Source: Ferruginibacter sp.
GTDB taxonomy: Bacteria; Bacteroidota; Bacteroidia; Chitinophagales; Chitinophagaceae
Assembly (NCBI RefSeq): GCF_028288465.1
Contig: NZ_JAQBNR010000056.1
Location: forward strand, 1 to 64,000
Direction of reading: 5' to 3'
DNA length: 64,000 nt
The position numbers were made by a program, and so were the translations under genes. Below are positions 15,884-63,774 of the stretch, piece after piece. Below the pieces are notes generated by a model that did no database searches, was not told where the DNA came from, and worked only from the letters and a program-made list of their open reading frames with translations. Within the stretch, counting starts at the first letter, position 1, and the number at the start of each line of letters is the position of its first letter.

Positions 15884-16366
15884 ATGAAAAAGAATACCAT
15901 TTGCCTGTGGTACAACCATGATGCAGAAGCCGCTGCGCAGTTTTATGCCCAAACCTTTCCTGACAGTACAGTAGGCGCTGTTCACCGGGCTCCGTCTGAT
16001 TATCCTGATGGCAAGGAGGGGGAAGTGCTGACAGTAGAATTTACGGTATGCGGTGTACCCTGCATTGGACTTAATGGAGGAGAAACGTTTAAGCACAGCG
16101 AGGCATTTTCCTTTCAGATTTCCACTGAGGACCAGGAAGAAACTGACCGTTACTGGAACGCGATTGTTGAAGGAGGTGGTGAAGAAAGTCAATGCGGCTG
16201 GTGCAAGGACAAATGGGGTCTGTCGTGGCAAATAACGCCACGCGTTTTATCAGACGCGATGATACAGGGTGGTGCTATTGCAAAACGTGCGTTCGAAGCG
16301 ATGATGCAGATGCGTAAGATTGATGTTGCCGCAATTGAGGCTGCAGTCAACGGTCAAGCTGTTTGA
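15884..16366 (+). CDS. VOC family protein (PhnB/3-demethylubiquinone methyltransferase-like)
   Basis: The 160-residue protein matches the VOC superfamily branch often labelled '3-demethylubiquinone-9 3-methyltransferase' (PF06983). It opens 'ICLWYNHDAEAAAQFYAQTFPDS', has 'VEFTVCGVPCIGLNGGETFKHSEAFSFQI' in the middle and 'CGWCKDKWGLSWQITPRVL' near the end, followed by an 'AFEAMMQMRKIDVAAIEAA' helix. The beta-alpha-beta-beta-beta fold usually binds a metal or a small molecule. The methyltransferase name is not supported by biochemistry. It is a stand-alone gene with a nearby 3' hairpin. Confidence 0.85.
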   Translation: MKKNTICLWYNHDAEAAAQFYAQTFPDSTVGAVHRAPSDYPDGKEGEVLTVEFTVCGVPCIGLNGGETFKHSEAFSFQISTEDQEETDRYWNAIVEGGGEESQCGWCKDKWGLSWQITPRVLSDAMIQGGAIAKRAFEAMMQMRKIDVAAIEAAVNGQAV

Positions 16367-29667: not shown

Positions 29668-29959
29668 AATATATCAAAGAGGTTGTAAAATTGGCCGGTA
29701 TTGATGAAAAAATAAAGATTACACATAAGCTAGGTAATAAAATAATTGAAGAAACAAAACCCAAATACGCGTGGATTATGTCTCACACCTGTCGTGGTCG
29801 TTTTGCACAAATGAGTTTCTTGACGGAACACCAACAAACTTAATCATGGGCATCAACGGACATAAAACAGAAAAGGCATTCAGGAGATACATTAAAGCAG
29901 ACCAAGTACAAAAAGCTCACATGATTAAGAAACTTTGGGACAACAGATCAGGTTTGTAA
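29668..29959 (+). pseudogene. Tyrosine recombinase (integrase) C-terminal remnant
   Basis: After a TAA, the plus strand reads 'YIKEVVKLAGIDEKIKITHKLGNKIIEETKPKYAWIMSHTCR' and then, after a one-base frame change near 29790, 'SFCTNEFLDGTPTNLIMGINGHKTEKAFRRYIKADQ'. Together this is the catalytic end of a Bacteroidota tyrosine recombinase: H-x-x-R ('SHTCRRSF'), the G-H box ('GHKTEKAFRRY') with the nucleophilic Tyr in 'RRYIK'. The N-terminal two thirds are missing and the frame is broken, so it is dead. It marks an old mobile-element insertion next to the efflux operon promoter. No further coding trace is seen in 29960-30233. Confidence 0.7.
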
Positions 29960-62705: not shown

Positions 62706-63369
62706 AAGTATAACCCTGCCACCCCGTTGTTAGGTATTCACGCCTGGCCAGCGCTCGGCACAAAATTATGCAAAGCCAGTTTAGCAGGCGATGTAGCACA
62801 GTTTGTAATGGTTCATTTAATTAAAATTTATTGCGGTGTATTTAAAGGAAGTTTATAAGGTACGGATTGCTACAAGGATACTGGCTTCACAGGGGAGCCC
62901 TTTTTATTATAAGACAATTACTTCGACAGGTGCTATTGCTTATTAAAATGATAGTTAAAAAATTGGCCTTTTTTCAATCAATGGAATTATTGATGTCGTC
63001 AGGGTTCATCCAAATTGTGCGTGTTATATTTGATTTGGTTTTTCGCCGCATATAGGATCAAGACAGGGCTGCCGGGTTTTCAGTAAGCCCCTTTTTGGAT
63101 AAAATTAGTTATCAATTTTGGGCACAGTTTTAGTTTATTTTTTAATGGTTTTCATAGGATATTGGACAAAAGTCGGGGCAACTGTTTTCACGGTAAGCCC
63201 CCTTTTTTATATCGCAAACGATTCTTAGGTGTAATACCCAAAGGAACTAATTTCAACTGATGATTATGTAGAGCCCTTCTGAAAATTGAAAAGAAAAGGT
63301 ATAATTCCAGGGAATACATTCACCCTGTTTGCACTCAATTGATGCACTATTCACTTGCACACATAAAAA
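62706..63369. other. Gene-poor stretch with short repeats
   Basis: There is no supported gene. Two related pieces, 'ttttcagtaagcccctttttgga' (~63079) and 'ttttcacggtaagcccccttttttat' (~63185), look like a duplicated short motif. ORF 62867..63055 lacks coding character. Confidence 0.4.
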
Positions 63370-63372
63370 ATA

Positions 63373-63399
63373 AAAAAGGTGACTATTAGTTAGCCACCT
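63373..63399 (-). terminator. Terminator after the tRNA fragment
   Basis: On the minus strand 'aggtggctaactaatagtcaccttttttattttttatg' has a 5-bp stem and a strong T-tract. An alternative stem uses ccacct (63394-63399) and aggtgg (63409-63414). This is what normally lies after a tRNA gene. Confidence 0.65.
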
Positions 63400-63411
63400 T
63401 CATCCTTCAGG

Positions 63412-63458
63412 TGGAGAATACCAGATTCGAACCGGTGACTTCCTGCATGTCATGCAAG
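63412..63458 (-). tRNA. Truncated tRNA-Val(GAC), 3' half only
   Basis: Read on the minus strand, the anticodon arm 'CTTGC-ATGACAT-GCAGG' (anticodon GAC) is followed by variable loop, T arm 'ACCGG-TTCGAAT-CTGGT' and acceptor strand 'ATTCTCC' with discriminator A. The D arm and 5' acceptor strand are missing: the sequence upstream is unrelated and AT-rich. It cannot work as a tRNA. Such 3' halves are the usual scar (attachment site) of an integrative element that entered an intact tRNA-Val gene. Confidence 0.75.
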
Positions 63459-63573
63459 AACAAAATTTTGGAAATGTTTTTGATTAGAATGGGCAGTACC
63501 TATAACTGCCTGTAAAAAATGTCTGTCCGGTAAATTAAGCAGCCGCCACTAACTATATGACGGCTGATTAATT

Positions 63574-63774
63574 TTAGTTCGCGTGACTTTTATTTCCTTT
63601 TGTACTTAAATAGTTCATCACGGCCTGCCGCGAAGGGCCTTTTTCTTTGATGGCCTGAATAATCTGTTCATGTGACAAATTGGGGAACTGTTGATGTACA
63701 TATTCAGCCTCAGCTGCATCATTTACATCAATCCAGCTCCTGTCCCGACCATCCTGTATTTTTTTATTATCCAT
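63574..63774 (-). CDS. DUF3606 domain-containing protein
   Basis: This 66-residue protein of the DUF3606 family opens 'KIQDGRDRSWIDVNDAAEAEYVHQQFPNLSHEQIIQAIKEKGPSRQAVMNYLSTKG' (G-x-D-R-x-x-I/V-x-x and 'A/v-x-x-x-G-x-s' as in the family). It is small, charged and soluble; its function is unknown. A weak hairpin ('agccg...cggct', 63540-63566) follows its stop. The ATG is the only sensible start. Confidence 0.85.
   Translation of the reverse strand: MDNKKIQDGRDRSWIDVNDAAEAEYVHQQFPNLSHEQIIQAIKEKGPSRQAVMNYLSTKGNKSHAN

What the first reader, a model, noticed from the sequence alone, without database searches (positions are those of the whole stretch)
63412..63458. tRNA-Val(GAC) 3' half as attachment-site scar
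A perfect anticodon-to-discriminator half of tRNA-Val with its terminator lies alone. Its orientation (3' end to the left) means the native flank continues to the left and the integrated element should extend to the right of the window, up to an intact tRNA-Val. This is a seen fact plus standard integration logic.
Basis: partly seen in the sequence, partly recalled or inferred. Interest (0 to 1): 0.6.

Follow-up and report, generated by a model that had tools for sequence, protein, structure and literature searches.

The report
Old tRNA-Ala half left by integration
The window holds an ageing copy of the back half of the tRNA-Ala(GGC) gene (not tRNA-Val) that looks like the mark left where a mobile element once recombined with that gene; no element remains beside it, so it is an ordinary genomic scar.

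Summary
The fragment is real, at the stated place (63412-63458, minus strand) and alone, but its name is wrong. Its only close match in the genome is tRNA-Ala(GGC) (43/47; next best tRNAs, Val-TAC among them, 28/47). "GAC" is one G-to-A change in Ala's GGC, and the sister species carries the orthologous scar with GGC still intact.

In this genus (Ferruginibacter-like, Chitinophagaceae) tRNA-Ala(GGC) is a recurrent integration site. In four relatives, and truncated in a fifth, the same tyrosine integrase sits directly 3' of the intact gene, and 3'-half scars in the genus typically begin at tRNA nucleotides 26-29. The window's scar begins at 27, the left edge of the 17-base anticodon palindrome.

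The predicted intact tRNA-Val and element to the right were not found. The 105 kb from the window's end to the contig end hold no tRNA and no intact integrase. The intact tRNA-Ala is on another contig. In the sister genome, 590 kb right of the scar hold no intact copy. The scar predates the split of the two species and is orphaned.

Two wrinkles: similarity to the tRNA-Ala locus runs about 120 bp past the tRNA, further than a simple attachment site explains; and the trailing terminator's stem and T-tract are unchanged between species while its loop is not. Low interest.

The parts
63411..63458 (-). 3' half of tRNA-Ala(GGC), nt 27-74, four substitutions from the intact gene in the first 47 nt, anticodon GGC decayed to GAC
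63442..63458 (-). Left edge of the scar: degenerate copy (CTTGCATGACATGCAGG) of the 17-base anticodon palindrome CTTGCATGGCATGCAAG; similarity to the tRNA stops exactly at 63458
63375..63401 (-). Intrinsic terminator (11-pair stem, loop of 5, T-tract); stem and T-tract identical in the sister species
63290..63410 (-). 3' flank similar to the 3' flank of the intact tRNA-Ala gene on contig C43 (79% over 170 bp together with the tRNA half)
63574..63774 (-). 66-aa DUF3606 gene upstream of the scar on the same strand, conserved in the sister species (not part of the tRNA scar)
63540..63566 (-). Second terminator-like hairpin just after the DUF3606 stop codon, stem conserved in the sister species

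Best explanation
It is an orphan attachment-site scar. A mobile element with a tyrosine integrase recombined through the anticodon stem-loop of tRNA-Ala(GGC), leaving a displaced 3'-half tRNA with its terminator and flank. Later the element was lost and the segment was separated from the intact tRNA by rearrangement, before the two sister species split. The half cannot make a tRNA and is decaying; its terminator hairpin is still intact. Shown: identity as tRNA-Ala, breakpoint, orthology in the sister species, absence of an attached element or paired tRNA, and the same kind of site occupied by integrase elements in relatives. Inferred: that integration rather than another duplication made this copy, and the later loss and rearrangement.
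For: Closest and only close relative is tRNA-Ala(GGC). The break lies at nt 27, the edge of the anticodon palindrome, and other fragments in the genus break at nt 26-29 (G012, G062, G097, G023, G109, G005). In G012 a 16-kb element with a Phage_integrase gene directly 3' of the intact tRNA ends in such a scar; homologous integrases sit 3' of tRNA-Ala in G011, G023, G034 and, truncated, G094. The 3' flank of tRNA-Ala differs in almost every relative while the 5' flank is recognisably shared in several. Anticodon-centred attachment sites and displaced 3' fragments are the standard island signature (PMC4383910).
Against: No integrase, element gene or paired tRNA remains near it. Similarity to the intact locus runs about 120 bp past the tRNA, whereas in G012 the two flanks are unrelated; this needs tandem related elements, an attP that carried host flank, or a duplication. 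Some partial tRNA-Ala matches in the genus break elsewhere (nt 12, 18, 41, 44).
Confidence: 0.72

Rival explanations
1. A segment of the tRNA-Ala locus (3' half plus about 120 bp of flank) was duplicated, or a second tRNA-Ala gene lost its 5' half by deletion, without any integrase.
For: Similarity extends about 120 bp beyond the tRNA through the terminator and beyond it. No element or integrase remains nearby.
Against: The break falls at the same 1-3 bases as integration scars in relatives; a random end within that range has a chance of only about 5% (my estimate, 4 of 75 positions).
Confidence: 0.22
2. The scar's terminator is now used, and kept by selection, as a transcript end for the upstream DUF3606 gene. 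This concerns present use and is compatible with either origin.
For: Stem and T-tract have 0/28 changes between species against 21% overall (chance about 0.0015), while 4/5 loop bases changed. The DUF3606 gene lies upstream on the same strand in both genomes.
Against: One pair of genomes only. A second hairpin with a conserved stem lies right after the DUF3606 stop codon and may do the job alone.
Confidence: 0.3
3. One reading: a tRNA-Val scar at the left end of an element still present to the right of the window.
For: Orientation (3' end to the left) is right for it, and about 80 kb to the right is absent from the corresponding place in the sister genome.
Against: The sequence is tRNA-Ala. 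No tRNA or Phage_integrase match follows up to the contig end. The sister genome keeps the scar without the 80 kb, whose genes are metabolic.
Confidence: 0.02

Closest known systems
Displaced tDNA fragments that mark genomic islands (Islander; anticodon-centred attP class; PMC4383910)
   Same: 3' tRNA fragment beginning at the anticodon stem, as in the anticodon-centred class
   Different: No integrase and no intact tRNA paired with it within a plausible distance; Islander's integrase filter would reject it
tRNA gene fragments left by integrated elements and misread as tRNA genes (PMC9897764)
   Same: Partial tRNA easily given a wrong isotype; integration is the usual source
   Different: Here the element is gone and the anticodon has mutated
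The 16-kb tRNA-Ala(GGC) element of relative G012 (C33:80201-96125)
   Same: Same target gene and nearly the same junction (nt 26 against 27)
   Different: It still has its integrase, its other genes and the paired intact tRNA; its two flanks are not similar to each other

Membership tests
Attachment-site scar of a tRNA-targeted element | 3' fragment of a tRNA gene whose intact copy exists in the genome | tested here: met
Attachment-site scar of a tRNA-targeted element | Breakpoint at a crossover site known for integrases | tested here: met
   nt 27; relatives 26-29
Attachment-site scar of a tRNA-targeted element | Element with integrase between the intact tRNA and the fragment | tested here: not met
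   none on C46 beyond the scar; 590 kb without an intact copy in G062. So it can be filed only as an orphan scar, not as the end of a present island.
Attachment-site scar of a tRNA-targeted element | Similarity between the two ends limited to the att core | tested here: not met
   similarity continues about 120 bp past the tRNA
tRNA-Val(GAC) | Sequence closest to tRNA-Val | tested here: not met
   43/47 to Ala(GGC) against 28/47 to Val(TAC); sister ortholog has GGC
Functional tRNA gene | Complete cloverleaf | tested here: not met
   no 5' half; no ARAGORN call

The most novel reading that the evidence does not exclude
An attachment scar has been domesticated: the terminator left behind by an integration event is kept by selection as a transcript end for a neighbouring gene long after the element was lost.
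Probability: 0.2. Interest if true: 0.3.

Novelty: new member of a known kind. Interest (0 to 1): 0.15.

Why it matters
It corrects a plausible misreading (Val instead of Ala, island still present) and documents tRNA-Ala(GGC) as a recurrent anticodon-type integration site in Ferruginibacter-like bacteria, with an orphan scar older than a species split. The general phenomenon is well known.

Tried and rejected
tRNA-Val identity: rejected by comparison with the genome's own tRNAs and by the sister ortholog. A present island to the right: rejected for lack of a tRNA, an intact integrase or recognisable mobile-element families; the roughly 80 kb absent from the corresponding place in G062 are polysaccharide-use and metabolic genes. 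Decayed integrase near the scar: relaxed tblastn over 56001-66000 gave only chance-level matches (E above 1). An empty-site comparison in other genus members failed because the scar block was found only in G062. One region request was one base too long.

Full report
What is there. Minus-strand positions 63458 to 63411 read CTTGCATGACATGCAGGAAGTCACCGGTTCGAATCTGGTATTCTCCAC: anticodon arm, variable loop, T arm, acceptor strand and discriminator of a tRNA, followed by a terminator hairpin. There is no 5' half, and ARAGORN finds no tRNA in the window.

Which tRNA. A whole-genome search finds one relative of the stretch, at E 1.3e-27, on another contig (G000:C43), overlapping the genome's tRNA-Ala(GGC) gene at 16099-16174. 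Compared with the 3' halves of 22 of the genome's tRNAs, the fragment matches Ala(GGC) at 43/47 and every other at 28/47 or less, Val(TAC) included. The sister species G062 (97.8% identical over the tRNA-Ala locus) carries the orthologous fragment at C32:141745-141793 with anticodon GGC. 'GAC' is therefore most simply a decay mutation in an Ala fragment.

Is it an attachment scar. A search of 93 genomes of the genus (named close relatives are Ferruginibacter MAGs) with the full tRNA-Ala(GGC) shows several 3'-half fragments that begin at tRNA nt 26-29, among them G012 (26), G062 (27), G097 (27), G023 (28), G109 (28) and G005 (29); the window's begins at 27. Other partial matches start elsewhere (nt 12, 18, 41, 44). 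For G011, G094 and G110 the listed start at 18 reflects partial similarity 5' of the anticodon stem. Nt 27 is the left edge of the 17-base palindrome CTTGCATGGCATGCAAG, the anticodon stem-loop. In G012 an element of about 16 kb lies between the intact gene and the scar, with a 385-aa Phage_integrase protein directly 3' of the intact gene. Homologs of that integrase (66-86% identical) sit in the same position in G011, G023, G034 and, truncated, G094. The 5' flank of tRNA-Ala is recognisably the same in several relatives, whereas the 3' flank differs in almost every one, as expected at a site of repeated integration. Islander lists anticodon-centred crossovers as one of two common classes (PMC4383910), and integration-derived tRNA fragments are described as pervasive and prone to mis-annotation (PMC9897764).

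Is the element there. No. Contig C46 runs 105 kb beyond the window; it has no tRNA and no Phage_integrase match, only one decayed integrase C-terminus near 151.8 kb. In G062 the scar has 590 kb of contig to its right and no intact tRNA-Ala there; its intact gene is on C30. Synteny shows a compact order in G062, whereas in the window's genome about 80 kb of other DNA lies between the scar block (63329-64733) and the shared block at 145600, with two small shared blocks inside. That DNA encodes glycosidases, a SusD protein, dehydrogenases and the like; no mobile-element family is among the 25 of 60 Pfam families displayed, and none of the 20 PHROG families found is described as an integration or structural gene, though most have no description. 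Since G062 keeps the scar without this DNA, it is unlikely to be the element that made the scar.

What does not fit simply. Similarity to the intact locus continues about 120 bp past the tRNA, through the terminator. In G012 the flank of the intact gene and the flank of the scar look unrelated. Either two related elements with the same attP flank once sat in tandem, or attP carried captured host flank, or the copy arose by segmental duplication. The first two keep the scar reading; the third is the main rival. The coincidence of the breakpoint favours integration but does not prove it.

Present role. Between the two species the terminator stem and T-tract are unchanged in 28 positions against 21% divergence over the whole aligned block, while 4 of 5 loop bases differ (chance about 0.0015, for one pair of genomes and a region chosen after seeing it). 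A conserved DUF3606 gene lies upstream on the same strand. A second hairpin with a conserved stem just after its stop codon leaves it uncertain whether the scar's terminator is used.

Verdict. An ordinary, orphaned attachment-type scar of tRNA-Ala(GGC), mislabelled tRNA-Val. Low interest.

Noticed in passing
window 29798-29920 (+): Remnant of a tyrosine recombinase C-terminus (41 aa, 49% identical to the integrase at G000:C43:152230), with no full-length reading frame around it.
   Followed up: no
G000:C46:151831-152067: Second decayed integrase C-terminus (37% identical to the integrase at C7:138790); the DNA here is repeated at G062:C32:99359 and 111039.
   Followed up: partly
G000 contigs C7 (L076), C49 (L073), C36 (L075): Intact tyrosine integrases within about 1 kb on the 3' side of tRNA-Asp(GTC), tRNA-Leu(CAA) and tRNA-Leu(CAG): likely occupied integration sites in this genome.
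   Followed up: no
G000:C46:47970-145600 against G062:C32:132170-146000: Highly plastic region: about 97 kb in the window's genome against about 14 kb in the sister species, with shared blocks in a different order.
   Followed up: partly
L033:4057-6252 (-), G000:C46:66057-68252: 731-aa protein that joins a glycosyl hydrolase family 1 domain to an RmlD-type domain, next to a glf (UDP-galactopyranose mutase) gene.
   Followed up: no
L039:7066-8604 (+), G000:C43: Reverse transcriptase (RVT_1, 513 aa) about 8 kb on the 3' side of the intact tRNA-Ala, followed by a stretch (8.7-11.2 kb) with multi-copy similarity to the sister genome.
   Followed up: no
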